Below, piece by piece: positions 13,746 to 27,356 of a stretch of 64,000 nt of DNA. The stretch spans positions 438,980 through 502,979 of the forward strand of contig NZ_JSEO01000001.1 in NCBI RefSeq assembly GCF_001624705.1, in the 5' to 3' direction. The position numbers were made by a program, and so were the translations under genes. Below the pieces are notes generated by a model that worked only from the letters and a program-made list of their open reading frames with translations, searched no databases and was not told the origin of the DNA. Every line of letters starts with the position of its first letter. The stretch's first letter is position 1. The stretch comes from Marinomonas sp. SBI8L (GTDB lineage Bacteria > Pseudomonadota > Gammaproteobacteria > Pseudomonadales > Marinomonadaceae).

Positions 13746-15377
13746 ATGTCACACGCCCCTATTCTTGAGGTCAAAAGCCTCTCTATTAGTTTTGCCTTAA
13801 CCCAAGGCACATTGGATGCTGTTAAAAATTTAAGCTTTGAACTTTACAAGGGAGAAACCCTAGCGATTGTTGGCGAATCCGGTAGTGGTAAATCGGTTTC
13901 AAGTAATGCCCTGATGCAACTTTTACCTAAGAACGCCAGCATCAAGGCAGAGTCTAGTATTGTCTTTGAAGGTGAAGAGATCTTATCCAAATCCGAAAAA
14001 GACATGCGTCAGATTCGTGGGGATAAAATTGGCATGATCTTCCAAGAGCCCATGACCTCACTTAACCCTTATTTGAAGGTTGGCACTCAAGTCGCTGAGG
14101 CCATGTTATGCCATCGCTCTGTTTCTAAAAAAGTGGCAAAAGCTAAAGTATTAGAACTCTTTAACCTAGTACATCTCCCCTTTCCTGAACAAGCTTATGG
14201 TAAATACCCACATGAGTTTTCCGGCGGGCAATTACAACGCATCATGATCGCTATGGCGCTTATCAACGAGCCAGACATCTTGATAGCAGACGAACCTACC
14301 ACAGCTTTGGATGTGACAGTACAGGCAGAAGTATTAAACCTGATTAAAGAAGTTCAGACTAAAATGGGTATGGCTGTGCTCTTTATCACCCATGATTTAG
14401 GTGTGGTCAAGCACCTTGCCGATAGAGTCTTAGTCATGTGTAAGGGCGAACTAGTGGAGCAAGGGGAAACAACAAGCCTGTTTGAAAATCCGCAGCTTCC
14501 CTATACTAAGATGCTAATCGACTCGACACCAAGAGGCCAAAAGGATGAGCCACCTAAAAATGCAACCGAGTTACTTAAAGCCAACGACATTAAGGTGAAA
14601 TACCATATCGGCACTCAGCTCATTAGCCGTAAGAAGGAATACTTTGAAGCCGTTAAAGGCCTCTCATTAAATTTAAAACAAGGTGAAACCCTAGGCATAG
14701 TGGGCGAATCTGGTTCAGGTAAATCCACCCTAGGCAGAGCCTTAATTGGCTTATTACCATCAAGTGGCCAAATAGAATTTAAAGGCCAAGATGTTAGCAA
14801 ACTCAGCAAAAAAGACAGATTTGATCTTAAAAAAGATATTCAAGTCGTCTTCCAAGACCCTTATGGTTCCCTTTCACCACGTATGACTGTAGGCGAAATT
14901 ATCACCGAAGGGCTTACGGTTCATCGTCCTGAATTATCTAAAGCAGAACGCATGCAAAAAGCCCGTAAAGCGTTAGAGGAAGTTCGTTTAGAAGCTCACT
15001 CCATCAATCGTTATCCCCATGAGTTTTCGGGTGGGCAAAGGCAACGTATCGCTATTGCCCGCGCTTTGATTCTAGAGCCTTCTTTTATCTTGTTAGATGA
15101 ACCCACCTCAGCCCTTGACCGCTCAGTCCAGCTAACAGTCATCGACTTACTGAAGAATATTCAAAAGCAGCACAATATTGGCTTCTTGTTTATCAGCCAC
15201 GACTTAAGCGTGGTGAAAGCTTTGTCTGACCGAGTAATGGTGATGCAAAAAGGGGAAGTGATGGAAGAAGGCTCAGCTGAAGAGGTTTTCAAGAATCCAA
15301 AAAGTAGCTATACCCAAAAACTCATTGCCGCATCTTTTGACCTTGAGCCTGAGATTAATGAAGGCAAGGTTGCTTAA
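13746..15377 (+). CDS. Double-domain ABC ATPase, peptide-type (YejF-like)
   Basis: A 543-residue fusion of two ATPase domains of the dipeptide/oligopeptide class (DppD- and DppF-like). Each half has Walker A (GESGSGKS at residues 43-50 and near 318), the signature 'EFSGGQ', Walker B ('[12 protein letters not shown]' and '[12 protein letters not shown]') and the H-loop ('ITHDLGVV', 'ISHDLSVV'). The C-terminal lobe after each domain carries the short peptide-transporter extension ('[12 protein letters not shown]'). YejF is the ATPase of the YejABEF microcin C/peptide importer, but no binding protein or permease is next to it here; the only companion is the TPR-like gene 12 bp upstream. Confidence 0.9.
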
Positions 15378-15451
15378 GTTTCAGATATTAAAGAACTTAT
15401 AAGCAACCGATTAGTTCTACTTAAACAAATACCGCCCAAGCTAATCAGTTG

Positions 15452-15498
15452 AAGGATTCGCAGCTATACTAAAACCTTAACTAGGCAAGCGAATCCTT
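15452..15498. terminator. Inverted repeat after the ATPase gene
   Basis: AAGGATTCGC and GCGAATCCTT pair perfectly over 10 bp around a long 27-base loop. It could be a terminator for the ATPase gene or a dyad operator for the small gene starting at 15515. Confidence 0.45.
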
Positions 15499-15514
15499 TA
15501 GCTTTGGAGTCATG

Positions 15515-15823
15515 ATGAAACTTAGTCAATTAGAGCAATACTCAGAGATAGAAAAGCTTATTTTTAATAGCTTGGACCCTGCTTTATATACGGTTAGCGC
15601 CCTTATTTCAGGGGGAGATGATGCTGAAGAGCACATGATTACAGATGAATCTGAGATAAATTTAAAGGGTAACAATGTGCTCAGCTTACAAAAACAGCTC
15701 CGTAAGGTTAAAGCGGCTAAGCATGTAATAAGACACACCAGTGCTTATGATGAGATGATTGGCGGCCCACTTAACGCCACCAACGAAATGGAAGTGCCCG
15801 TTGGAGACAGTAAGCTGTATTAA
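15515..15823 (+). CDS. Small hypothetical acidic protein (possibly DUF6482)
   Basis: A 102-residue cytoplasmic protein beginning MKLSQLEQYSEIEKL. I choose the ATG at 15515 rather than the adjacent 15512, because GGAG then has six bases of spacing instead of three. The layout (N-terminal 'KLSQLEQYSEIEKLIFNSLDPALYTVSALI', then a 'LSLQKQLRKVKAAKHVI' strand-helix and an acidic 'YDEMIGG' end) recalls the DUF6482 proteins of marine gammaproteobacteria, but I am not certain. No function is known. It lies alone before the guanidine locus. Confidence 0.6.
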   Translation: MKLSQLEQYSEIEKLIFNSLDPALYTVSALISGGDDAEEHMITDESEINLKGNNVLSLQKQLRKVKAAKHVIRHTSAYDEMIGGPLNATNEMEVPVGDSKLY

Positions 15824-15825
15824 CC

Positions 15826-15841
15826 AGCCTTAACTAAGGCT
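15826..15841 (+). terminator. Short hairpin after the small gene
   Basis: AGCCTT-AACT-AAGGCT directly behind the stop codon. The T-run is absent, so termination would be weak. The remaining bases to 16084 are AT-rich leader sequence in which no other feature was recognised. Confidence 0.35.
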
Positions 15842-16084
15842 TAGCAACGGGTTTTATATGCCTAAAAACGCCTATAAAACTTGCACTATAACAGCACACA
15901 CCGACACACTCACGCCCAAAATAAAGTCAAAAAAGTAAGCTTTTTATTCGAAAAACACGCTAAAACCCCGCATTTACGACTTTTAAAAACTTGGCATCTA
16001 ACTTGCTAAATCTAAGAACAGGTAATCTTGGCGATGGCTAAAATAGCCTATCAAACGCCTGAACATACAATTTGCAATAGTATA

Positions 16085-16187
16085 GCTAGGGTTCCGATTT
16101 TGAAAAAAGTGTCTGGTCCGAGAGCTATCGACCTCACCTGATATTCTCAGTGAAGGTTACACGGAGGGATAAAAGCCCGGGAGAATC
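16085..16187 (+). ncRNA. Guanidine-I riboswitch (ykkC class)
   Basis: The 420-bp leader before the transporter gene contains the hallmark ykkC segments in order: GCTAGGGTTCCG at 16085, CTGGTCCGAGAG near 16113, and the strongly conserved ACGG-AGGGATAAAAGCCCGGGAGA split around 16161-16184. This class binds guanidinium and generally switches expression on. The genes downstream (importer, deiminase subunits, carboxylase, allophanate hydrolase) are exactly its usual regulon. No clear intrinsic terminator was seen between 16187 and the start codon at 16244, so the expression platform may act by a longer-range alternative fold or at translation. Confidence 0.93.
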
Positions 16188-16243
16188 AGTTGGCATTAGC
16201 CAAGATTGCTCTTACGTAACCATTAATCACTTGGGAGTTCCAA

Positions 16244-17293
16244 ATGAAAAAACTTACCACCAGCTTATTATTAAGTGCATCTCTTGTTGTTGGGGCGTTA
16301 AACGCGCCGATTGTCCATGCCAAAGAAGACTTTAAGGTGTGTTGGTCTATCTATGTCGGTTGGATGCCTTGGGAATATGGTAGCCAATCCGGCATAGTGC
16401 AAAAATGGGCGGACAAGTACGACATCAATATCGATGTTGTGCAGTTCAATGATTATGTCGAATCTATGAATCAATACACAGCCGGTGAATTTGATGCTTG
16501 CACCATGGCTAACATAGATGCTCTGACAATTCCTGCTGCTGGCGGCGTTGATTCTACCGCCCTAATCGTCGGCGACTTCTCCAATGGCAACGATGCCGTC
16601 ATCTTAAAAGACGGTGAATCTCTTAGCGATGCTAAAGGGCAAAACATTAACCTTGTTGAATTAAGTGTTTCCCATTACTTATTGGCACGTGGTTTAAACA
16701 GTGTTGGCCTTTCAGAACGCGATGTCAGAGTGGTAAATACCTCAGATGCCGACCTTGTCGCAGCATTTACTACCAGTGATGTCACCGCTGTTTCCACTTG
16801 GAATCCATTAGTGAGTGAAATTCTTGATATGCCGAATAGCAACAAGGTATTTGATAGCTCTCAGATCCCAGGAGAAATCATAGACACCTTGATTGTGAAT
16901 ACAGAGGTTTTAAACCAGCACCCTAAATTAGGTAAAGCCCTAGTCGGTGCTTGGTACGAAATCATGGACAAAATGAAGCAAGAAGAATCCGTTCGCGAAC
17001 ATATGGGTAAAGCCTCTGGTACTGACTTGTCTGGATTCGAAAGCCAACTTGCCTCAACCAAAATGTTCTACCAAGCAAAAGACGCTGTCGAATTTGTCAA
17101 AAGTCCGGCGCTAAAGGACACAATGCAATACGTTGCTGAGTTCTCTTTCGACCATGGACTATTGGGTGATGGTGCAGCAGACGCTGGCTTTATAGGAATA
17201 GAAACACCAAGTGGTGTCTTCGGGGATAAGCACAATATCAAATTACGTTTTGATCCTAGCTACATGGAAATGGCAGCCAAAGGCGATCTCTAA
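16244..17293 (+). CDS. Guanidine-locus ABC transporter, periplasmic binding protein
   Basis: A 349-residue periplasmic protein with a signal peptide ending VHA at residue 26. The mature part begins 'FKVCWSIYVGWMPWEYG' and has the NitT/TauT-like bilobal pattern ('YTAGEFDACTMANIDALTIPAAGGVD', then 'TSDVTAVSTWNPLVSEI'). This subfamily is found next to urea/guanidine carboxylase genes and used to be called urea-binding. Lying directly under a guanidine riboswitch, it most likely delivers guanidinium (inference). GGGAG provides a ribosome site 7 bases before the ATG. It heads an operon with permease, ATPase and the catabolic genes. Confidence 0.9.
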   Translation: MKKLTTSLLLSASLVVGALNAPIVHAKEDFKVCWSIYVGWMPWEYGSQSGIVQKWADKYDINIDVVQFNDYVESMNQYTAGEFDACTMANIDALTIPAAGGVDSTALIVGDFSNGNDAVILKDGESLSDAKGQNINLVELSVSHYLLARGLNSVGLSERDVRVVNTSDADLVAAFTTSDVTAVSTWNPLVSEILDMPNSNKVFDSSQIPGEIIDTLIVNTEVLNQHPKLGKALVGAWYEIMDKMKQEESVREHMGKASGTDLSGFESQLASTKMFYQAKDAVEFVKSPALKDTMQYVAEFSFDHGLLGDGAADAGFIGIETPSGVFGDKHNIKLRFDPSYMEMAAKGDL

Positions 17294-17362
17294 TCCAATC
17301 TTTTTTTAAACACGCAGAGTAAGCCATGAGCTTACTCTCACCCTTAAATTAGAGAGAAAGAT

Positions 17363-18178
17363 ATGAAACGCTGGATAAACAAAACACCCTCTAAAACCTT
17401 GGCATTTGTATTAGGTGTGATCCCATTTATTCTTGTCATGGCCTTGTATCAATGGGGTTCTGATGCGCGTAAAGCTGAAAACTCTAACGATAAACTTTTA
17501 CCGAGTGTCGGCCAATTTTATAGCGCGATAGATAGACTTGCCTTTACTCCTAGTAAGCGCACTGGCGAATACATATTCTGGAAAGACACAGTAAGCAGCT
17601 TAAAACGCTTATTGATGGGGGTCGCGTGTGCGGCGGCAATTGCCTTGGTATTAGGCTTGATAACAGGGGCGATTCCTTTAATGGCGGCTAATCTCAGCCC
17701 TATTATCACCACCCTCTCACTGATTCCTCCTATGGCGGTATTACCTTTACTCTTCATTGTGTTTGGGCTTGGAGAGCTATCTAAAGTCATGCTTATCATA
17801 GTGGGAATTACGCCATTCTTGATCCGTGACCTTTATCAGAAAACAAAGGAAATCCCTCAAGAGCAGCTCGTTAAAGCGCAAACGTTAGGTGCCAACTCAG
17901 TACAGCTGATTAACCGTGTTTTATTACCGCAAATTTTGCCCAGATTACTTGATGCACTGCGCTTAAGTTTAGGTACAGCGTGGTTATTTTTGATTGCAGC
18001 TGAAGCTATTGCCGCCACAGAAGGTCTGGGTTATCGCATATTTTTAGTACGTCGATACCTCTCGATGGACATCATTCTTCCCTACGTCATGTGGATTACC
18101 TTTTTAGCTTTCTTATTAGATTGGCTATTGGTACATGCCAGTAAAAAGGCGTTCCCCTGGTATCACAGCGCTAAGTAG
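17363..18178 (+). CDS. Guanidine-locus ABC transporter, permease
   Basis: A 271-residue inner-membrane component of the NitT/TauT class. It shows about six helices and the cytoplasmic EAA-type loop ('EIPQEQLVKAQTLGANSVQLINRVLLPQILP' split; A..LG.....+...LP) at residues 167-195, which docks on the ATPase. It lies 69 bp after the binding-protein gene and 8 bp before the ATPase gene. The function follows from the locus: uptake of guanidinium or a close derivative. Confidence 0.9.
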   Translation: MKRWINKTPSKTLAFVLGVIPFILVMALYQWGSDARKAENSNDKLLPSVGQFYSAIDRLAFTPSKRTGEYIFWKDTVSSLKRLLMGVACAAAIALVLGLITGAIPLMAANLSPIITTLSLIPPMAVLPLLFIVFGLGELSKVMLIIVGITPFLIRDLYQKTKEIPQEQLVKAQTLGANSVQLINRVLLPQILPRLLDALRLSLGTAWLFLIAAEAIAATEGLGYRIFLVRRYLSMDIILPYVMWITFLAFLLDWLLVHASKKAFPWYHSAK

Positions 18179-18186
18179 AGGTAATT

Positions 18187-19017
18187 ATGACTAAACAAAA
18201 TAACGCGCAACCAGCCAATAAAACAGATGAATCTGCCCAAACTCAGATTGAATTTAATCATGTGGCTAAGTCCTACGGTGAAAATCTAGTACTAGATAAT
18301 ATTAATTGCGAAGTAAAACGAGGGGAATTCATCACCATGGTCGGCACATCTGGCTGTGGTAAGAGCACCTTTTTAAACATGCTACTCGGCACAGTGGCCC
18401 ATTCTAAAGGGGATATCTTATTAGAAGGTAAACCTATAGTTGCGGAACCGAGTCCAGATCGAGGCATTGTTTTTCAAAAGTACTCTGTCTTCCCTCACTT
18501 GAGCGTGCGTGAAAATGTTGCCATTTCAAAAGAGTTTGAAGCGAGTCCAGTATTAGGTCGGCTATTTGGCGAGAGACGTAAACAAGCCTTAACTGAAACA
18601 GATGAATGGCTCGAAGCCGTTGGGCTACTCGCCGCAAAAGACAAGTACCCACACGAACTTTCTGGTGGCATGCAACAAAGGCTAGCCATTGCTCAAGCGC
18701 TAATTAAACACCCCAAAGTGTTGCTACTAGACGAACCATTCGGCGCCCTTGATCCGGGCATCCGAAAAGACATGCATAAGTTGGTGTTAGAGCTTTGGAA
18801 GAAGTATCAACTCACCATTTTTATGGTGACCCATGATCTAAACGAAGGCTTCTATTTAGGTACTCGCTTATGGGTATTTGATAAAACGCGGCACGATCCA
18901 CATGCCCCACATCGTTATGGCAGTACGATTACCTTTGATCTGCCTATTGGTAAAACGGATGAAGCAAGCTTTGTAAAAATCGAAAAGTCCTTAGAGTCAA
19001 ATCGACTCTCAGCTTAA
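18187..19017 (+). CDS. Guanidine-locus ABC transporter, ATPase
   Basis: A 276-residue cytoplasmic ATPase of the NitT/TauT class. Walker A is GTSGCGKST near residue 53-61, the signature 'LSGGMQQRLAIAQAL' near 158, Walker B 'VLLLDEPFGALD' near 180, and H-loop 'VTHDLNEG'. A polar N-terminal 20-residue tail precedes the domain. The ribosome site is in the 8-bp gap after the permease stop codon. It energises the importer of this operon. Confidence 0.92.
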   Translation: MTKQNNAQPANKTDESAQTQIEFNHVAKSYGENLVLDNINCEVKRGEFITMVGTSGCGKSTFLNMLLGTVAHSKGDILLEGKPIVAEPSPDRGIVFQKYSVFPHLSVRENVAISKEFEASPVLGRLFGERRKQALTETDEWLEAVGLLAAKDKYPHELSGGMQQRLAIAQALIKHPKVLLLDEPFGALDPGIRKDMHKLVLELWKKYQLTIFMVTHDLNEGFYLGTRLWVFDKTRHDPHAPHRYGSTITFDLPIGKTDEASFVKIEKSLESNRLSA

Positions 19018-19076
19018 AGCTCAACCTTAACCTTTAACCTAACCCAATACTTCAACTTAAAGAGTAAATTGATAAA

Positions 19077-19814
19077 ATGAAAAATAGTTTGCAAAGTTTA
19101 CTTAAAGATAAGCACTATCAAACTCACATCCCTGGTGCGAGCCACTGGTCTACCATTATTCGAAAAGGCACTGAACTGCGCCTAAAAGACATAGAAGGTG
19201 GCGCAAATGTTGGTATGTTGTTTTATAACCCAAGTATCTTAAGTGAAAAATACAACGCACCAGATACTCTAAAATGCCAACACACATTCAAACTCACCCA
19301 AGGCCACTGTCTATACAGCGAAATGGGCCGCATCTTTTGTTCTATCACATCTGATAGTTTTGGCTGGCATGAAACCGTTTGCGGTACTTCACATGCAAAG
19401 CACATAGAAGAAAGCTGGGGCAAACGTGACTATCAAGGGGACCACAACCTTTGGCGTCAAAATGGCTTCGATAGCTTTTTAGTGGAACTCGCTAAATACA
19501 ACCTCAGCAAACAAGACCTTTGTGCCAATGTAAATTGGTTTAGCCAAGTCAGTGCCGACGAAGCGGGCAAACTCGCTCTAACAAGACATAGCCAAGCTGG
19601 GGACGAAGTCGTATTAAGATTCGAAATGGACACACTGGTCGTATTGCATACCTGCCCTCACCCACTTAACCAAGCAAAAGAATACCCAAACAAACCTGTT
19701 GCTATCAGCTTGAGTCAAGCCGAAACAATGCATGATGACGATGAGTGCCTGAACCACTGCCCAGAAAATCGTCGCGGTTTTGAAAACAACGCGTTATACC
19801 ACTTTGGTTTATAG
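19077..19814 (+). CDS. Carboxyguanidine deiminase-type subunit (UAAP1, DUF1989)
   Basis: A 245-residue cytoplasmic protein formerly called urea amidolyase-associated protein 1. Proteins of this pair were shown to form a carboxyguanidine deiminase (CgdAB) that removes ammonia from the carboxylase product to give allophanate. Conserved metal-ligand candidates are visible: Cys and His in '[17 protein letters not shown]' (near 100-115) and the later '[12 protein letters not shown]'. It is followed after 8 bp by its partner (19823). Which of the CgdA/CgdB names applies to which gene I leave open. No urease-like features occur. Confidence 0.87.
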
Positions 19815-19822
19815 GAGCCACC

Positions 19823-20461
19823 ATGATTAAAGCAAGCTTATTAAACGTAGAAGACGCTAAATTCTCACAATCTATCGATGCTGGTGATTACTTTTTTCAC
19901 TGTATCAAGGCAGGCGAAACCATACGCCTTGTTGACCTTAAAGGTAATCAAGCAGCCGATACCCTATTTTATAATGCCAATGATGTCAGCGAACGCTACA
20001 GCGCCATGGACACAGTACGTGAACAAAGTGCGTTATATCTAACAACACACTCTGTTTTAAAAACCAATTTAAACAGAGACATGCTCGAAATCGTCGCAGA
20101 TACCTGTGGTCGTCATGACACTGTTGGCGGCGCCTGTGCCACTGAATCAAATACAGTGAGGTATGACTTGGAAAAACGTTGCATGCATGCCTGTCGTGAT
20201 AGCTGGATGTTAGCCATTCAAGAAAATGAAGAGTATGGATTGAGCAAAGCGGATATCACTCACAACATCAACTTTTTCATGAATGTGCCAGTCACTCAAG
20301 AGGGTAAATTAACCTTTGAAGATGGTATCTCAGCACCGGGTAAGTACGTTGAATTAAAGGCAAAAATGGATACCTTGGTATTAATTTCAAATTGTCCGCA
20401 ATTAAACAACCCATGTAATGGTTATGACCCCACCCCGATTCAGGTCTTGGTCTGGTCTTAG
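19823..20461 (+). CDS. Carboxyguanidine deiminase-type subunit (UAAP2, DUF1989)
   Basis: A 212-residue cytoplasmic paralogue of the preceding protein (urea amidolyase-associated protein 2). The core contains '[24 protein letters not shown]' (divided over residues 38-62), the metal-site candidate '[15 protein letters not shown]' (about 92-106), 'CMHACRDSW' and the end '[21 protein letters not shown]'. With the upstream subunit it should deiminate carboxyguanidine to allophanate. GGAG lies in the short gap before the start. The 123-bp gap after it holds a second riboswitch. Confidence 0.88.
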
Positions 20462-20522
20462 GATAAACCGTATTTCTATAAACCCATTAGCCCATTTGCA
20501 TTAACGCTATTTTTTGCATTTT

Positions 20523-20568
20523 TTAGTCAGGACGACCTGATTAATGTATTTATTCTCGGGACGACCCG
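20523..20568 (+). ncRNA. Guanidine-II riboswitch (mini-ykkC class)
   Basis: Two adjacent hairpins share the class-defining ACGA tetraloop. P1 is TCAGG-ACGA-CCTGA (20527-20540), extendable outward to 9 bp with one G.U pair (20523-20544). P2 is CGGG-ACGA-CCCG (20557-20568). The linker is AT-rich. The ribosome site GGAG (20576-20579) and the carboxylase ATG (20585) follow P2 directly, as in characterised mini-ykkC leaders, where guanidine-driven pairing of the two loops frees the ribosome site. It would control translation of the carboxylase independently of the ykkC switch 4.4 kb upstream. Confidence 0.88.
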
Positions 20569-20584
20569 CAAGTTTGGAGCCGTT

Positions 20585-23500
20585 ATGTTTAACACGGTAA
20601 TGATTGCAAATCGAGGTGCAATAGCCACTCGCATTATTCGCACACTTAAAAAATTAGGTATTCAATCCCTTGCTGTTTATCACCAAGAAGATAAAGACTC
20701 ATTACATGTTCAGCAAGCTGATATTGCTGTATGTCTGGGTGATAACAGTGTCGCAGACACCTACCTTAATATTGAAAAACTCATTCAGATTGCCAAACAA
20801 CACCAAGTAGATGCCATTCATCCAGGCTATGGCTTTTTAAGTGAAAATACTGAGTTCGTGAGTCAATGTGAACAAGCAAACATCGTTTTCATTGGCCCGA
20901 CAAGCACACAAATGAACCTATTTGGTTTGAAACACCTAGCACGGGATGCAGCAGAACAAGCCGGCGTACCGCTTGTACCAGGCTCACCATTACTAACCGA
21001 ACGAAACGACGCCATACATTGGGCTAATAAGATTGGCTACCCTATCATGCTAAAAAGCACCGCTGGCGGTGGTGGTATTGGAATGCAAGCCTGCCTCAAT
21101 CAAGATGAAATGCTTATTGCCTGGGAAAGCGTTAAAAGGTTAGGTGAAAACTACTTCTCTAACGATGGCGTCTTCTTAGAAAAACTCATAAAAAATGCAC
21201 GACATATCGAAGTACAAATTTTTGCCAATGGACAAGGACAAGCCATTAGCCTTGGAGAACGCGATTGCTCAGCCCAGCGCCGTAATCAAAAAGTTGTCGA
21301 AGAAACGCCAGCACACAATTTAACTCATGACGTCCGTGAACAGCTCCATAACACCGCAGAGCGCTTAATGGCATCGGTTAATTATCGTAATGCCGGTACC
21401 GTTGAGTTTATCTTTGATCATGATGCTAATGCATTTTACTTTTTAGAAGTAAATACGCGATTACAGGTTGAGCATGGCGTAACGGAAGCCGTTTGGGGAG
21501 TCGATCTGGTTGATTGCATGATCAAGCAAGCAGCAGGAGAAATGGAAGATTTACAGGCGTTTAAAGCACAGCTCACACCCTCAGGCCATAGTATTCAAGC
21601 CCGTATTTATGCTGAAAACCCAGCACAAGACTTCCTACCCAGTAGCGGTTTATTGTCAGAGGTAAACTGGCCACAAAAAGATAACTTACGTATTGATACT
21701 TGGATTGAGTCAGGTATCCAAGTACCCGCTCTATTTGACCCTATGTTGGCAAAAGTCATCACCACAGCGGATGATAGACAAACCGCAATCAGCGAATTAG
21801 AACAGGCCCTTGATCACAGCACCCTCTATGGCATACAAACTAACAAGGCTTATGTTCAAGCTATTCTAAATGGCCCTATGCATCAAGGTGGCCAACTATT
21901 TACCAAGGATCTGGCTGATTTTAAAATCCAGACACCTAGTTTTTCTGTATTAAGTGGCGGCACCCAGACAAGTATTCAAGACTATCCCGGCAGGCAAGCA
22001 CACTGGCATGTTGGCGTACCACCTTCTGGCCCAATGGACTCACTTAGCTTTCGCTTAGCCAATGAATTATTGGGGAATAACCTTGATGCTGCCGCCTTAG
22101 AAATAACCTTAAATGGCCCTAGACTTAAGTTTCATACATCTTGTGATGTTGCTCTAATTGGTGCCGAATTTGATGTGAGTTTGGATGGCAGCCCAGTTGC
22201 AATGAACCAAGTCATTCACCTAGATGCAAACCAAACCCTAAGCATAGGAAAAGTCAAAGGAACTGGCGCGCGTTGTTATCTTGCCGTTAAAAATGGCATC
22301 CAATGTCCTGACTATTTAGGCTCAAAATCTACCTTTACCTTAGGCCAGTTTGGTGGCCATGTGGGCCGAGCACTGCGTACTGGAGACGTGATAGAACTCG
22401 CTAATATAATATCTAATAAAAAGACGAATAAAGAGACTAATCAAAAAACGAATACACAGAGCAGTCTGAAAACTCAGCCCGTTTTATCCGCAAACTTTCA
22501 GCAGCAAGCCAAGCAAACCTTTAATCCAGAAATCTCGCAATTAAGGGTTATCTACGGGCCCCATGGCGCACCAGATTTCTTTACCGAAACAGATATAAAG
22601 ACCTTCTTTGAGCATACTTGGGAAGTGCATTACAACTCCTCTCGTACAGGTGTTCGTCTTATCGGGCCCAAGCCTGAATGGGCACGAGAAAGCGGCGGCG
22701 AAGCTGGCATGCACCCTTCGAACATTCATGATAATGCCTATGCTTTTGGTACCGTGGATTTTACGGGTGACATGCCCGTTATTCTTGGTCCAGATGGCCC
22801 ATCATTGGGTGGATTTGTTTGCCCTGCTACTGTCATTAGTGCCGACCTTTGGAAGCTAGGCCAATTAAAAGCCGGTAGTAAAATTCAATTTATTCCCGTG
22901 ACACACGCTCAGGCTATTTCCCTCGAAAAAGCGCAAATAAGCGACATACGTGAGTTAAGCTTGGTGGCTGAATCAGTATCCTTATCTAAGTCAGAGTCAG
23001 AGCAAGTAACTAGTCGCGGCATTAACCCAGCCGCTTTAGCTTCCCCCAAAGTACATCAAGGGAAAATTGGGAATGACGAGGTAATTTGCCGTTTAGCGGG
23101 AGATCATTTCTTACTTGTCGAATTAGGTCCATTAGCGCTTGATATTCCACGTCGTTTTAAAGTTCACGCCCTCATGTTATGGCTAGAAAACTATAAAAAA
23201 ACGCATCCAGAATCTGGTCTAAGAGAATTAACACCTGGCATTCGCTCTCTTCAAATTCACTTTGACTCTCAAGTGATGAGTCTAGACAAGCTCACTCGTT
23301 TAATTGATCAGGCTTGTCATTATGTGGCCACTACCGAAAACCTCACCTTACCTTCTCGCACAGTGTATTTGCCACTAAGTTGGAATGATGAAGCCTGCCA
23401 ATTAGCCATAGAAAAATACATGCAATCGGTACGTAAAGACGCGCCTTGGTGTCCAAGTAACCTAGAGTTTATCCGCCGTATTAATGGCCTAAAAGATATT

Positions 23501-24331
23501 CAAGCGGTGAAAGACACTGTCTTTAGCGCGGATTATCTGGTGATGGGATTAGGAGATGTTTATTTAGGTGCACCCGTTGCAACGCCATTGGACCCACGCC
23601 ATCGACTGGTCACAACAAAGTACAACCCTGCTCGTACTTGGACCGCTGAAAACTCAGTTGGTATTGGTGGGGCTTATATGTGTGTTTACGGGATGGAAGG
23701 CCCAGGTGGGTATCAATTTGTGGGTCGTACGTCACAAATGTGGAATCGCTACCGTAAAACCAAAGAGTTTACCCAACCTTGGCTGCTACGCTTTTTTGAT
23801 CAAATAAAATTCTATGAAGTAAGCCCAGAAGAGCTAGCACACATTCGAGAAGCATTACCAAAAGGCCAAGTATCCCTAAGGATAGAAGAAACACAGTTTA
23901 GCCTAAATGATTACCAAAATTTCTTGGACGCTAATCAAACTCAAATGACGGAATTTGTTAAAGCCAGAGATGAGGCCTTCGATGAAGAACTCGCCCGTTG
24001 GAAGGAGAATGGTCAACTTACCTATGAGGTGGTTGAACCAGAGACTAGCCAAGATGATGAGCAGGCCTTAGCAGAACTTATCTCAGCCGAAAACATTAAT
24101 GCTATCGATAGCCCTGTATCGGGCAATGTTTGGCAGTGCAAAGTAGAAGAAGGCCAAACCGTAAAAGCAGGCGACGTATTAATGGTTTTGGAGTCCATGA
24201 AAATGGAAATAGAAATCTATGCCAGCTGTGATGGCCAAGTAAGAAGCTTATTAAAGCAGCAAGGACAATCGGTTCAGTCAGGACAAGCCCTCGCCTTAAT
24301 AGAACTCGCGCCAGTCACTGAACTTGCCTAA
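20585..24331 (+). CDS. Biotin-dependent guanidine (urea-type) carboxylase
   Basis: A 1248-residue cytoplasmic biotin enzyme. Order: biotin carboxylase N-terminal, ATP-grasp (with 'KSTAGGGGIGM' near 158) and C-terminal parts to about residue 440; a KipA/AHS2-like region (about 455-760, 'GPSGPMDSLSFRLANELLGN' type); an AHS1/KipI-like region (about 850-1060, ending 'KYNPARTWTAENSVGIGGAY' type); and a C-terminal biotinyl domain with Lys1206 in 'ESMKME'. Homologues were named urea carboxylase. Genomic association with guanidine riboswitches and the deiminase pair indicates guanidine as substrate, forming carboxyguanidine with ATP and bicarbonate. A stretch of lysine/threonine repeats near residues 610-635 is a low-complexity linker. 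Confidence 0.9.
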   Translation: MFNTVMIANRGAIATRIIRTLKKLGIQSLAVYHQEDKDSLHVQQADIAVCLGDNSVADTYLNIEKLIQIAKQHQVDAIHPGYGFLSENTEFVSQCEQANIVFIGPTSTQMNLFGLKHLARDAAEQAGVPLVPGSPLLTERNDAIHWANKIGYPIMLKSTAGGGGIGMQACLNQDEMLIAWESVKRLGENYFSNDGVFLEKLIKNARHIEVQIFANGQGQAISLGERDCSAQRRNQKVVEETPAHNLTHDVREQLHNTAERLMASVNYRNAGTVEFIFDHDANAFYFLEVNTRLQVEHGVTEAVWGVDLVDCMIKQAAGEMEDLQAFKAQLTPSGHSIQARIYAENPAQDFLPSSGLLSEVNWPQKDNLRIDTWIESGIQVPALFDPMLAKVITTADDRQTAISELEQALDHSTLYGIQTNKAYVQAILNGPMHQGGQLFTKDLADFKIQTPSFSVLSGGTQTSIQDYPGRQAHWHVGVPPSGPMDSLSFRLANELLGNNLDAAALEITLNGPRLKFHTSCDVALIGAEFDVSLDGSPVAMNQVIHLDANQTLSIGKVKGTGARCYLAVKNGIQCPDYLGSKSTFTLGQFGGHVGRALRTGDVIELANIISNKKTNKETNQKTNTQSSLKTQPVLSANFQQQAKQTFNPEISQLRVIYGPHGAPDFFTETDIKTFFEHTWEVHYNSSRTGVRLIGPKPEWARESGGEAGMHPSNIHDNAYAFGTVDFTGDMPVILGPDGPSLGGFVCPATVISADLWKLGQLKAGSKIQFIPVTHAQAISLEKAQISDIRELSLVAESVSLSKSESEQVTSRGINPAALASPKVHQGKIGNDEVICRLAGDHFLLVELGPLALDIPRRFKVHALMLWLENYKKTHPESGLRELTPGIRSLQIHFDSQVMSLDKLTRLIDQACHYVATTENLTLPSRTVYLPLSWNDEACQLAIEKYMQSVRKDAPWCPSNLEFIRRINGLKDIQAVKDTVFSADYLVMGLGDVYLGAPVATPLDPRHRLVTTKYNPARTWTAENSVGIGGAYMCVYGMEGPGGYQFVGRTSQMWNRYRKTKEFTQPWLLRFFDQIKFYEVSPEELAHIREALPKGQVSLRIEETQFSLNDYQNFLDANQTQMTEFVKARDEAFDEELARWKENGQLTYEVVEPETSQDDEQALAELISAENINAIDSPVSGNVWQCKVEEGQTVKAGDVLMVLESMKMEIEIYASCDGQVRSLLKQQGQSVQSGQALALIELAPVTELA

Positions 24332-24358
24332 CTTATACACGTTTAAAGGACATATCCC

Positions 24359-26146
24359 ATGTTTAACTTAAATATTATTGCACTTAAAAATGCCTATAAA
24401 AATAATGACACCACAGCCAAAGAACTTATTTTTTCGCTCCGACAACAAGCCCTAGAGCAGGCCGAATATAATGCCTGGATTACCTTATTGGATGAGACAA
24501 AATTAACTGAATACCTAAGCTATTTAGAAGGTAAAACCATAGATGAACTCCCTTTATATGGCGTACCATTTGCCATCAAAGACAACATAGACCTAGCCGG
24601 CGTACCAACCACAGCGGCCTGTCCAGACTTTGAATACACACCAAGCAAAAGCGCCTTTGTGGTAGAGCAATTAATGAAAGCTGGCGCGATTCCACTAGGT
24701 AAAACGAACCTAGACCAATTCGCCACAGGTCTAGTCGGTATGCGAAGCCCCTATGGTGAAGGTGTAAACGCCTTTAATACTGATTATGTGTCAGGTGGTT
24801 CAAGCGCAGGCTCGGCCATAAGCACCGCCTTAGGCCAAGTAAGTTTTGCACTTGGCACAGACACAGCCGGCAGTGGCCGTGTACCAGCCGCATTAAATAA
24901 CCTCATCGGTCACAAACCAACAAAAGGCTTATTCAGTAACTCTGGCTTGGTACCTGCTTGCTTAAGCTTGGATTGCATCACAGTATTCGCGCTAAATACA
25001 CAAGATGCGGCTTTGGTCACCAGCATTGCAGGCCAATATGACGAAGCAGATAGCTATGCAAGACCTAACAAACCAGAAAACCACTTACGTTACTTTGAAC
25101 CTAAGCTACCTCAAAACTTCACTTTTGGTGTACCCGCTGAATTAGATTTTTATCAAAACCCAGAAACGAAAGCCTTGTTTGAACAAACCGTAGAGCGTTT
25201 AGAAAACCTTGGTGGCACTAAAGTCACCATAGATTTTGTGCCTTTTACCACAGCAGCAAAACTCCTGTACGAAGGCCCTTGGGTGGCAGAACGTTGGTTA
25301 GCAACCCATGATGTAAAACGTGAATCCATGTTACCTGTGATTCAAACCATTATAGGTTCAGCAGAAGGTAAAACCGCAGCCGATGCCTTCAGCGCACAAT
25401 ATGCCTTACAAAGCTTTAAGAAAGTGTGCGATGCCCAAGTAGATGCCGTTGATTTTATGCTCACACCCACTTGCCCAACTCAATTCACCCGTGAAGCCTT
25501 GCGACAGGAGCCAATCAAATACAACTCGGTTTTAGGCACTTATACCAACTTTATGAATTTATTGGATTACGCTGCAACCAGTATTCCTGTTGGCTTTACC
25601 ACAAATAAAGTAAGTTGGGGTGTAACTTTCTTTAGCCATGCATTTAGAGATATCGAACTCTTAAGTTATGCTGGAGCCTTACATCAAGCCCTAGATTTAC
25701 CCCAAGGTGCGAGTGAATTTCCCTTACAAACTTATGAGTCTACCGCCATTGCAGCCCCACAAAAAAATATCGATGTGGTCGTCTGCGGCGCTCATTTAGA
25801 AGGTTTTCCCCTTAATTGGCAGCTCACTGAACGCAACGCCACACTCGTTAGCAAAACACTCAGTGCTGCCAAGTATCAACTCTATGCGTTACCAGATGGT
25901 AAACGCCCAGCGATGATACGTGATGATGAAGCGGGTCAAGCCATTAAAGTCGAAGTCTGGTCTATGCCGATAGAGCACTTTGGCTCTTTTGTTGCTGGCA
26001 TCCCTGCACCGCTTGGTATCGGTAAGGTAGAGCTTGCAGATGGTAACTGGTATTGCGGTTTTATGAGTGAGGGGAATGCAACATTAGATGCTACCAAGAT
26101 TACAGAGTTTGGTGGTTGGGCAAATTATATTCAATCTAAGAAATAG
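24359..26146 (+). CDS. atzF: Allophanate hydrolase
   Basis: A 595-residue cytoplasmic amidase-signature enzyme that splits allophanate to ammonia and CO2. The catalytic Lys74 ('AIKDNID'), cis-Ser148 ('SGGSSAG') and nucleophile Ser172 ('DTAGSGRVP') are in register with the family. Residues 1-440 are the amidase domain; 460-595 are the C-terminal gamma-glutamylcyclotransferase-like domain of AtzF/DUR1 ('VCGAHLEGFPLNWQL', 'VEVWSMP', 'GIGKVELADG'). It starts 28 bp after the carboxylase, behind AAGGA, and completes the pathway guanidine -> carboxyguanidine -> allophanate -> 2 NH3 + 2 CO2. Confidence 0.92.
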   Translation: MFNLNIIALKNAYKNNDTTAKELIFSLRQQALEQAEYNAWITLLDETKLTEYLSYLEGKTIDELPLYGVPFAIKDNIDLAGVPTTAACPDFEYTPSKSAFVVEQLMKAGAIPLGKTNLDQFATGLVGMRSPYGEGVNAFNTDYVSGGSSAGSAISTALGQVSFALGTDTAGSGRVPAALNNLIGHKPTKGLFSNSGLVPACLSLDCITVFALNTQDAALVTSIAGQYDEADSYARPNKPENHLRYFEPKLPQNFTFGVPAELDFYQNPETKALFEQTVERLENLGGTKVTIDFVPFTTAAKLLYEGPWVAERWLATHDVKRESMLPVIQTIIGSAEGKTAADAFSAQYALQSFKKVCDAQVDAVDFMLTPTCPTQFTREALRQEPIKYNSVLGTYTNFMNLLDYAATSIPVGFTTNKVSWGVTFFSHAFRDIELLSYAGALHQALDLPQGASEFPLQTYESTAIAAPQKNIDVVVCGAHLEGFPLNWQLTERNATLVSKTLSAAKYQLYALPDGKRPAMIRDDEAGQAIKVEVWSMPIEHFGSFVAGIPAPLGIGKVELADGNWYCGFMSEGNATLDATKITEFGGWANYIQSKK

Positions 26147-26168
26147 CGCTGTTTTACTAATAAACAAG

Positions 26169-26206
26169 AGTAGCAAAGCCACCCCGAACCTGCTGGTTTT
26201 GCTACT
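26169..26206 (+). terminator. Hairpin closing the guanidine operon
   Basis: AGTAGCAAAGCCA pairs with TGGTTTTGCTACT (one G.U) around a 12-base loop 23 bp after the last stop codon. The following bases are not strongly T-rich. The rest of the gap to 26460 is AT-rich with nothing recognised. Confidence 0.65.
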
Positions 26207-26459
26207 AGCTGTTTATCAAACCTAACATTTCTTATCTCTCTTTTTACCTTAACCTCTTTTCTTTAATCAATTGATAACACGAAAAAGTGTGCTCGTAACG
26301 ACTAAATAGATAACATTCAAGGTGTCATTTACTTTATAAACAACTAAAAAAGTAAGTAATAAATTAAAAGCTATTAGAAAGCGCTCAATGTCACAAAAGC
26401 GATAGCATCACTTAATTTCTACTCTGTTTGGTTAGATAGCTGTTAGACAAGCCATCCGT

Positions 26460-27356
26460 TTATTTGAAGTTTTTTAAAAGTTCTGAGAGCTCGTCATATA
26501 TAAGTCTCATCCTTTTATTCGACTTTAACTCTCTGTGAGCGGTGATCCAAATCGGGAAAGAAGCAATGAATTCATCTTTAAATAATCTAACCATGTTTTC
26601 TTTTTCACGAGCAGCAATATCTAAACAAAAGCCGCACCCTAAACCTTCTTCGATTAATTCATAAATTAAGACATAACTATCAGTTCTAAGAGCAAAATCT
26701 TCATCATTAATGTCGAACCCACTTTTGTTTAAGCCATCTTTTATATCTGTAAAATTATCTTGCCCTATTAAATCAAAGCCCAACACAGCATCAAAGTCCT
26801 TTGCATTTACAGATGCCATAAGCTCTTTATATCGTGGATATTTTTTCGACACATAAAAGCCAATTTCTAGATTTAATATTCTCTTGGTAATTAAATCGTT
26901 TTGAGTGGGCCTCACCATTCTTAAAGCGATATCAGCCTTTCTTTCTAGTAGGTTTTCAACCTTATCCGAAGGGCTAATGATCAATTGAATTTGAGGGTAT
27001 TTTTCGCGTAGCTTCCCCATTAACTGAGGCAAAATTTTTAAAGCGATAGTATTGCTTGCTGAAATCCTAACCGGGCCACTAACCACATTAGAACGCATGT
27101 CAGCAAGGCTAGAAATTGCCATTGCATGAGAGTTCATCTGCTTTACTTCTTGTGCAAGCTCTAAACCGAATTCAGTTGCAATGTAACCTCTAGCGGTTCT
27201 ATCAAATAATAAATTACCTAAATCTTTTTCTAATTGTTCAATATGTCTACCAACCGTTGGCTGTGATATTTTTAACTCTTGGGCGGCTTTAGACAAACTC
27301 TTTAATTCAATAACAGCAAGGAATGTCTTTAGTAACCCCCAATCTACATGATTCAT
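26460..27356 (-). CDS. LysR-family transcriptional regulator
   Basis: A 298-residue LTTR. The helix-turn-helix is at residues 5-62 ('LKTFLAVIELKSLSKAAQEL', 'ISQPTVGRHIEQLEKDLG'), followed by the effector domain ('LLERKADIALRMVRPTQND' and 'LIYELIEEGLGCGFCLD'). It points away from the guanidine operon's end and toward it in transcription (convergent), so control of that operon is unlikely. The divergent neighbour is the broken Crp-like gene 315 bp away. Target unknown. Confidence 0.86.
   Translation of the reverse strand: MNHVDWGLLKTFLAVIELKSLSKAAQELKISQPTVGRHIEQLEKDLGNLLFDRTARGYIATEFGLELAQEVKQMNSHAMAISSLADMRSNVVSGPVRISASNTIALKILPQLMGKLREKYPQIQLIISPSDKVENLLERKADIALRMVRPTQNDLITKRILNLEIGFYVSKKYPRYKELMASVNAKDFDAVLGFDLIGQDNFTDIKDGLNKSGFDINDEDFALRTDSYVLIYELIEEGLGCGFCLDIAAREKENMVRLFKDEFIASFPIWITAHRELKSNKRMRLIYDELSELLKNFK

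What the first reader, a model, noticed from the sequence alone, without database searches (positions are those of the whole stretch)
16085..20568. Two different guanidine riboswitch classes control one guanidine catabolic locus
A ykkC (guanidine-I) motif precedes the importer, and a second leader of the mini-ykkC (guanidine-II) type, with two ACGA-loop hairpins, sits 4.4 kb further on directly before the carboxylase ribosome site. Seen in sequence: both sets of conserved blocks. Known: each class binds guanidinium, and class II mostly frees the ribosome site. Inference: transport and deiminase genes are switched by class I at the leader, while the ATP-consuming carboxylase gets a second check, giving staged or AND-type control within one transcript. 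Dual-class control of one operon would be unusual and is easy to overlook because annotation usually stops at the first riboswitch.
Basis: partly seen in the sequence, partly recalled or inferred. Interest (0 to 1): 0.85.

Follow-up and report, generated by a model that had tools for sequence, protein, structure and literature searches.

The report
Guanidine operon with two riboswitch classes
A marine bacterium's guanidine-eating operon carries two different guanidine-sensing RNA switches, an arrangement already published in other bacteria, and comparative evidence suggests that the first switch acts on protein synthesis rather than on transcription as usually assumed.

Summary
Observation confirmed. 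Rfam finds exactly two RNAs in the window: Guanidine-I at 16075-16185 (83.4 bits, cut-off 63) and Guanidine-II at 20524-20568 (41.3 bits, cut-off 32), around importer and deiminase genes and before the carboxylase.

"Unusual, easy to overlook" is wrong. The layout is published for Raoultella, Erwinia and Klebsiella (PMC12186494) and, with in-line probing of both RNAs, for Vreelandella boliviensis (PMC12508155). Both classes occur in 61 of 80 nearest named loci; class II in 47 of 58 class-I-anchored carboxylase loci of Pseudomonadota.

What may be new is how class I works. The hairpin after it lacks a U run. A sigma-54-like element precedes 75 of 92 class I aptamers. The Shine-Dalgarno co-varies with the aptamer's P2 arm, and a 5' strand with the post-aptamer strand. 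I read class I as a translational ON switch on a nitrogen-limitation transcript, with class II gating the carboxylase separately: two parallel gates, not a transcription-then-translation AND gate. All mechanism is predicted, none assayed.

The parts
15992..16006 (+). sigma-54 type -24/-12 promoter-like element TGGC-N8-TGC (predicted transcription start about 16018)
   Evidence: Pattern TGGC-N8-YGC lies within 140 nt upstream of the aptamer in 75 of 92 thinned class I loci (144 before thinning), versus 4 of 92 on the opposite strand and 80 of 1718 random windows. The sigma-54 consensus and the 12-nt distance to the start are recalled. The genome encodes an RpoN homologue.
16021..16032 (+). 5' strand of a predicted long-range helix (P0-like) that closes the class I aptamer
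   Evidence: GGTAATCTTGGC is complementary to 16199-16210. Own-versus-permuted duplex test over loci: 0 of 3000 permutations.
16075..16185 (+). Guanidine-I (ykkC) riboswitch aptamer
   Evidence: RF00442, 83.4 bits, positions 1-107 of 107.
16143..16153 (+). P2-arm segment predicted to sequester the importer Shine-Dalgarno when no ligand is bound
   Evidence: MFE fold. P(SD paired with P2 arm) 0.86 for aptamer-to-start-codon, 0.60 from the predicted transcription start.
16179..16213 (+). aptamer tail GGGAG plus switch hairpin ending GCTCTT; terminator-like shape, no run of more than two U after it
   Evidence: Folds. No terminator call by my script; the laxer scan does list 16190-16203 as terminator-like (5 pairs).
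16216..16221 (+). GTAACC, complement of aptamer GGTTAC (16155-16160)
   Evidence: Duplex -9.0 kcal/mol versus shuffled mean -5.3, p 0.04 for the window alone; coordinates.
16233..16237 (+). GGGAG Shine-Dalgarno of the importer gene (ATG at 16244)
   Evidence: Sequence; predicted unpaired probability 0.08 free to 0.55 with P2/P3 enforced; 0.24 to 0.58 from the predicted transcription start.
16244..17293 (+). ABC substrate-binding protein, probable guanidine importer subunit
   Evidence: TIGR03427 555.7 bits, cut-off 333.9.
17363..18178 (+). ABC permease
   Evidence: PF00528.
18187..19017 (+). ABC ATPase
   Evidence: PF00005.
19077..19814 (+). UAAP1 / CgdA-like carboxyguanidine deiminase subunit
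   Evidence: TIGR03425 317.2 bits, cut-off 205.95; PF09347.
19823..20461 (+). UAAP2 / CgdB-like carboxyguanidine deiminase subunit
   Evidence: TIGR03424 326.3 bits, cut-off 284.7; PF09347.
20523..20568 (+). Guanidine-II (mini-ykkC) aptamer: hairpins 20523-20544 and 20557-20568 with ACGA loops
   Evidence: RF01068 41.3 bits; own model R1 43.2 bits, but the window is one of the 28 sequences R1 was built from.
20573..20579 (+). TTTGGAG ribosome-binding site of the carboxylase gene
   Evidence: Sequence.
20585..24331 (+). urea-carboxylase family enzyme, probable guanidine carboxylase
   Evidence: TIGR02712 1753.5 bits, cut-off 1303.85.
24359..26146 (+). allophanate hydrolase
   Evidence: TIGR02713 716.8 bits, cut-off 511.05.

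Best explanation
This is a guanidine-carboxylase operon of the published dual-riboswitch kind. I infer one transcript from a sigma-54 promoter at 15992-16006, used when nitrogen is short. Without guanidine, the importer Shine-Dalgarno is paired with the P2 arm of the class I aptamer and the aptamer tail is held in the switch hairpin. Guanidine binding closes P2 and P3, lets the 5' strand (16021-16032) pair with the post-aptamer strand (16199-16210) and frees the Shine-Dalgarno, so the importer (and, by coupling, the deiminase genes) is translated. The carboxylase lies behind the widest intercistronic gap of the operon (123 nt) and has its own translational class II switch. Shown: the two RNAs, the genes, the layout's wide conservation, and the co-variation of the leader parts. 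Inferred: the single transcript, sigma-54 use, ligand response, direction of switching, translational coupling.
For: RNAs and genes. Same layout in 61 of 80 named loci; class II in 47 of 58 class-I-anchored gca loci. Published binding of both RNAs in V. boliviensis: apparent Kd about 44 uM guanidine for class I; about 93 uM guanidine and 83 uM methylguanidine for class II (PMC12508155). SD x P2 5' strand, own versus permuted: -8.22 versus -7.50 (sd 0.19), n=51, 0 of 5000; wider set -8.93 versus -7.63 (sd 0.22), n=58, 0 of 5000. Thinned below 0.65 similarity: 3 of 3000, n=37; start regions of other genes of the same loci fall short of it. Whole-leader folds: P(SD with P2 arm) 0.764 own versus mean 0.277, max 0.392 in 20 permutations, n=26; 0.668 versus 0.248, max 0.368, n=29. 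5' strand x post-aptamer strand: 0 of 3000, n=72. Two-state folds of 97 loci: SD opens in 57, closes in 5. Sigma-54 motif in 75 of 92. No clear promoter enrichment before class II.
Against: No experiment. Thinned below 0.60 the SD x P2 signal is weak (273 of 3000, n=25). The window's own P2 5'-strand:SD duplex is modest (-5.5 kcal/mol); its pairing lies further into the P2 arm. The window leader folds no better than shuffles (z -0.78). The far-upstream control of the 5'-strand test is not flat (59 of 3000), and gap-free helices of 9 bp or more occur in 129 of 354 permuted pairs against 46 of 72 own pairs. A lax scan lists 16190-16203 as terminator-like, and some relatives do have U tracts after this hairpin. 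For class II I found no SD co-variation with linker or upstream strand, and enforcing both hairpins did not open the window's site (0.31 to 0.23), so its mechanism here rests on the literature.
Confidence: 0.6

Rival explanations
1. Bi-mechanism control as proposed in print: class I ends or continues transcription of the whole operon through an intrinsic terminator and class II then gates carboxylase translation, giving two gates in series on one signal.
For: PMC12508155 says class I 'presumably' acts by a terminator; PMC12186494 says class I usually is a transcriptional ON switch. Terminator calls exist in 15 of 57 leaders of class I+II gca loci, 8 of 14 leaders of class-I-only gca loci and 7 of 55 unique leaders near named CgdB. 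The lax scan lists 16190-16203 in the window.
Against: No terminator call in the window leader by the fold-based script and most leaders of loci with both classes lack one; SD-P2 co-variation is unexplained by it.
Confidence: 0.2
2. Class I acts through Rho: SD sequestration leaves the leader untranslated and Rho stops transcription, so class I controls both translation and mRNA of the operon, and class II adds a second gate.
For: Same SD sequestration evidence; no U run after the hairpin. Coupling of translational riboswitches with Rho is cited in PMC12508155 (reference seen).
Against: No Rho site was tested; if Rho acted on the whole operon the second switch would be partly redundant.
Confidence: 0.3
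3. Two independent transcripts: class II leads a separate carboxylase-hydrolase mRNA from its own promoter.
For: The gene groups can be arranged apart: in L182 and L184 the deiminase and carboxylase genes follow class I directly and the importer-like hit lies 3.7 kb further on.
Against: Upstream of class II a sigma-54-like motif occurs in 4 of 58 and a sigma-70-like site in 3 of 58 thinned loci (random windows: 80 of 1718; 14 of 580), and neither in the window. Terminator-like matches across 15377-26500 are 15, shuffles 11.9 +/- 2.9; the only one in the CgdB-gca gap is class II hairpin 1 itself.
Confidence: 0.15

Closest known systems
Vreelandella boliviensis guanidine carboxylase operon (PMC12508155; passages and discussion seen)
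   Same: Class I in the 5' UTR, importer genes, cgdA/B, class II between cgdB and gca, then gca and allophanate hydrolase.
   Different: It has mgdH and mgdL between gca and the hydrolase; here these two genes are 27 nt apart. Its RNAs were probed experimentally; these were not.
Raoultella terrigena, Erwinia rhapontici, Klebsiella michiganensis guanidine operons (PMC12186494; passages and section 6 seen)
   Same: Importer and deaminase under class I, carboxylase and hydrolase under class II immediately downstream.
   Different: Host and sequence; I did not fetch those loci, nor could I read the original study (not held).
Tandem and bi-mechanism riboswitches (PMC9481103; passages seen)
   Same: Two switches for one ligand can act at two levels.
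   Different: The two RNAs here sit in two separate leaders 4.3 kb apart, not in one UTR. That review reports no tandem arrangement for guanidine classes.
PRPP riboswitch P0 helix (PMC6031431; passages seen)
   Same: 5' and 3' tails pair and take part in the expression platform.
   Different: [quoted passage not shown] here a longer, more distal 5'/3' helix is predicted around class I aptamers.

Membership tests
Guanidine-I riboswitch (RF00442) | Covariance-model match above the curated cut-off, full length | tested here: met
   83.4 bits versus 63, positions 1-107 of 107.
Guanidine-I riboswitch (RF00442) | Binds guanidine and not related compounds | not testable with these tools
   Shown in print for V. 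boliviensis, not for this RNA.
Guanidine-I riboswitch (RF00442) | Usual transcriptional platform with an intrinsic terminator (usual, not strictly defining) | tested here: inconclusive
   No terminator call by the fold-based script and no run of more than two U after the hairpin; the laxer scan lists 16190-16203.
Guanidine-II riboswitch (RF01068) | Two hairpins with ACGR loops; match above the curated cut-off | tested here: met
   41.3 bits versus 32; both hairpins read.
Guanidine-II riboswitch (RF01068) | Controls ribosome-site access of the next gene | tested here: inconclusive
   The ribosome site starts at 20573, 4 nt beyond hairpin 2, but no co-varying anti-SD was found and enforcing the hairpins did not open it.
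Dual class I / class II guanidine carboxylase operon (published layout) | Class I before importer genes; class II between cgdB and gca, same strand | tested here: met
Dual class I / class II guanidine carboxylase operon (published layout) | One transcript | not testable with these tools
   Only indirect: no clear promoter enrichment before class II.
Tandem riboswitch logic gate | Two switches in the same untranslated leader deciding one output | tested here: not met
   The two RNAs are 4.3 kb apart with five genes between.
Sigma-54 dependent promoter | -24/-12 element with GG and GC ten bases apart (recalled) | tested here: met
   TGGCATCTAACTTGC at 15992-16006.
Sigma-54 dependent promoter | Activity depends on RpoN and an activator | not testable with these tools
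   RpoN homologue present in the genome.

The most novel reading that the evidence does not exclude
In many Pseudomonadota the class I guanidine riboswitch is not a terminator switch. It is a sigma-54-transcribed translational ON switch in which the aptamer's P2 arm itself is the anti-Shine-Dalgarno and a long 5'/3' helix locks the ligand-bound state. Because such a switch opens only the first cistrons, evolution places a second guanidine switch (usually class II, in one locus a second class I) where transporter genes separate class I from the enzyme genes.
Probability: 0.45. Interest if true: 0.55.

Novelty: new member of a known kind. Interest (0 to 1): 0.35.

Why it matters
The dual arrangement itself is known. 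If the mechanistic reading holds, it corrects the assumption that class I works by termination in these operons and answers a question that PMC12508155 leaves open, namely what two guanidine switches do on one operon. It also ties guanidine use to nitrogen limitation and gives SD:P2 and 5'/3' strand pairs that can be tested by simple compensatory mutations.

Tried and rejected
Short upstream ORF: in many leaders the aptamer tail GGGAG looks like a Shine-Dalgarno followed by ATG or TTG. I rejected it as a conserved peptide because, by eye, the frame changes with hairpin-loop length among Marinomonas relatives and L103 has no start codon there. No statistical test was made.

CUCC element as anti-SD: blocking the tail lowers SD access in more leaders than it raises it (full block: drop above 0.2 in 15, rise in 2, of 136), the wrong direction for an ON switch, so I dropped it.

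Leader CGUGUAACC as complement of aptamer GGUUACACGG: supported in named loci (19 of 53 with p below 0.05, 9 below 0.01), weakly in the wider sample (9 of 52 and 3 of 52), so probably lineage-specific.

Class II anti-SD by co-variation: nothing found (linker 0.180 own versus 0.162 permuted, upstream 0.209 versus 0.204, 68 thinned of 119).

Terminator presence versus absence of class II: 15 of 57 against 8 of 14 leaders, Fisher p 0.052, leaders not independent; not used.

A first terminator finder missed bulged terminators and was replaced, itself heuristic.

Missing second switch: Rfam at a permissive threshold finds only class I in L130, L137, L149, L150 and L201, so real exceptions exist. 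In L050 and L099 it also finds only class I, although my pattern scan sees a long-linker class II in L099 and model R1 a weak one in L050 (22.8 bits).

Thresholds and rows dropped: named class II counts use R1 matches at E 1.8e-5 or better (L050 and L114, weaker, not counted). Sample class II counts use R1 matches of 24 bits or more on the carboxylase strand; four opposite-strand matches of 23.9-24.2 bits (L154, L155, L156, L161) were not counted. Of 169 class I leaders 168 got a start codon and 124 had P2 and GGUUACACGG recognised by my patterns. Leaders longer than 115 nt were left out (110 nt), leaders with N also out of 53, 60, 64, 74, 78 and 90. One search kept only loci with a sigma-54-like motif. 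Identical leaders were counted once. Start codons were chosen by a script that favours good Shine-Dalgarno sites; at least one (L090) is probably wrong.

Literature: searches for class I with translation, Shine-Dalgarno or expression platform (15 of 98 listed, 9 of 9, 12 of 40) showed me no listing of a translational class I platform; the primary 2017 class I paper was not among those I read. Searches for guanidine with sigma-54, RpoN or NtrC: 12 of 28 listed; none found.
Full report
OBSERVATION. Rfam 15 finds two families over their gathering scores in the whole 64 kb window: Guanidine-I at 16075-16185 and Guanidine-II at 20524-20568, both on the + strand and full length. Searches of the whole genome give one match each. 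The genes between and after them are an ABC importer (TIGR03427 substrate-binding protein, permease, ATPase), the two urea-amidolyase-associated proteins UAAP1 and UAAP2 (the CgdA/CgdB pair), a urea-carboxylase-family enzyme and allophanate hydrolase.

IS IT UNUSUAL? No. A 2025 review (PMC12186494; [quoted passage not shown] A 2025 paper (PMC12508155; passages, discussion) shows it for Vreelandella boliviensis, 'like in several other bacteria', and probes both RNAs: class I binds guanidine (apparent Kd 44 uM) but not methylguanidine; class II binds guanidine (93 uM) and methylguanidine (83 uM) alike. [quoted passage not shown]

HOW COMMON IS IT? In 14 genomes both hits lie on one contig about 4.2-4.6 kb apart. 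My own class II model finds the second element in three more (L205, L207, L208), giving 17 of 49. Among the 80 named loci nearest to CgdB, own models find class I in 64 (one cut off by a contig end), class II in 72, both in 61, neither in 5; at least four of the loci with class II alone are on short contigs (L056, L084, L093, L104). For a sample not chosen by CgdB I took class I hits from 370 Gammaproteobacteria (34 genomes with a hit) and 397 Pseudomonadota genomes (57; the draws overlap), using hits over the cut-off, and fetched 88 regions (L117-L204). Fifty-eight contain a carboxylase hit; 47 of these also have class II. It sits directly before gca in 38, before the deiminase genes in 8, and elsewhere in 1 (L119), read.

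A PLACEMENT RULE. In the 53 loci where other genes (usually the transporter) separate class I from the enzyme genes, class II is present in 47; in the 5 loci where the enzymes follow class I directly it is in none (Fisher p 0.0001, not corrected for relatedness). One of the 6 exceptions (L132) has a second class I there instead. The other five have no second RNA by Rfam. In the window the class II element lies in the widest intercistronic gap of the operon (123 nt; others 8-69 nt).

HOW CLASS I PROBABLY WORKS HERE. Published accounts expect a terminator. The window leader has a terminator-shaped hairpin made from the aptamer tail GGGAG but no run of more than two U after it, and my fold-based script calls none; a laxer pattern scan does list 16190-16203. 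Folding the leader without ligand pairs the importer Shine-Dalgarno (16233-16237) with the P2 arm of the aptamer (16143-16153) and GUAACC (16216-16221) with aptamer GGUUAC, although the leader as a whole folds no better than shuffles (z -0.78). I tested whether this pairing is general. The Shine-Dalgarno region pairs better with its own aptamer's P2 5' strand than with those of other loci: named set -8.22 versus -7.50 kcal/mol (sd 0.19), n=51, 0 of 5000 permutations; wider set -8.93 versus -7.63 (sd 0.22), n=58, 0 of 5000. The effect holds after thinning (n=69 and 51: 0 of 3000; n=37: 3 of 3000) but is weak at n=25 (273 of 3000). With the start regions of other genes of the same loci the permutations reaching the own value number 218 (gca), 883 (cgdA), 309 (cgdB), 1359 (ATPase) and 11 (permease) of 3000 unthinned, and 220 to 1372 of 3000 thinned; the permease result may reflect loci in which permease is the first gene. 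In whole-leader folds the own downstream part pairs its Shine-Dalgarno with the P2 arm with probability 0.764 versus 0.277 for swapped parts (n=26), and 0.668 versus 0.248 (n=29). Enforcing P2 and P3 opens the Shine-Dalgarno in 43 of 60 named leaders and closes it in 6 (29 and 6 of 47 in the wider set); in the window it goes from 0.08 to 0.55 unpaired.

A 5' STRAND. The 70 nt before the aptamer are strongly complementary to the post-aptamer strand of the same locus: 0 of 3000 permutations at every thinning and at n=72 (-36.7 versus -30.1, sd 0.57), whereas a stretch 80-150 nt upstream gives much less, though not nothing (-30.4 versus -29.2, 59 of 3000). The helix changes sequence while staying paired, for example AAUCUUGGC/GCCAAGAUU here and GUACCCUUGG/CCAAGGGUAC in L059 and L103. 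In gap-free terms the difference is modest: at least 9 bp in 46 of 72 own pairs against 129 of 354 permuted. In two-state folds from the predicted start site (97 leaders with a sigma-54-like motif), aptamer formation raises 5'-strand pairing from 4.2 to 12.9 pairs on average (more than 3 pairs up in 66, down in 0), lowers tail-hairpin pairing, and opens the Shine-Dalgarno in 57 leaders and closes it in 5, at a mean cost of 7.4 kcal/mol. The PRPP riboswitch is known to have such a tail helix, said not to be conserved in guanidine aptamers (PMC6031431, passages).

PROMOTER. A TGGC-N8-YGC element, the sigma-54 pattern as I recall it, precedes 75 of 92 thinned class I aptamers, against 4 of 92 on the opposite strand and 80 of 1718 random windows. 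In the window it is at 15992-16006. The genome has an RpoN homologue. My literature searches for guanidine with sigma-54, RpoN or NtrC (12 of 28 papers listed, none found) showed no paper that connects them; that is a narrow search of one open-access library.

WHAT THE TWO SWITCHES DO TOGETHER. My best reading is two translational gates on one nitrogen-responsive transcript: class I for importer and deiminase, class II for carboxylase and hydrolase. Both read the same signal, so this is parallel gating and not a two-input AND gate. The published affinities (about twofold apart) would open class I slightly first; I did not test that. For class II I could not confirm a co-varying anti-Shine-Dalgarno, and enforcing its hairpins did not open the window's site. 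That part rests on the literature.

LIMITS. Everything on mechanism is computed from secondary-structure energies and comparisons between loci; relatedness was handled only by thinning, the named and wider sets share some genomes, and start codons were assigned by script. Confidence: observation near certain; layout known; translational class I likely but unproven.

Noticed in passing
window 15992-16006 and upstream of class I in related loci: Sigma-54 type promoter element upstream of most class I guanidine riboswitches examined (75 of 92), suggesting that guanidine use is tied to nitrogen limitation.
   Followed up: partly
L155, L161 (three class I copies); L154, L156, L172, L173, L175, L176 (two): Several loci carry two or three class I riboswitches within a few kb plus one class II before gca.
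   Followed up: no
L213 4104-4484 (also L214-L216 around 5003): In the same genus class II also occurs apart from gca; in L213 it precedes a SugE-type SMR exporter gene. The genes behind the other three were not annotated.
   Followed up: partly
window 19823-20461 versus L037, L038, L048: The window's CgdB is closer to two other marine gammaproteobacterial MAGs (86% L037, 82% L038) than to the named Marinomonas loci listed (75-78%), and its leader resembles theirs, so the locus may have been exchanged horizontally (leaders).
   Followed up: no
L206 400-507 (genome G025): A class I riboswitch with no hit to any of the seven window operon proteins in the fetched 12.5 kb; the next listed ORF on that strand (161 aa) looks acetyltransferase-like by eye.
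   Followed up: no
L061 and other Alcanivorax/Alloalcanivorax loci: A dRNA-seq paper (PMC9788540, passages) reports class II in Alcanivorax only before a SugE-like gene; own model R1 finds it after CgdB, before gca, in these loci as well.
   Followed up: partly
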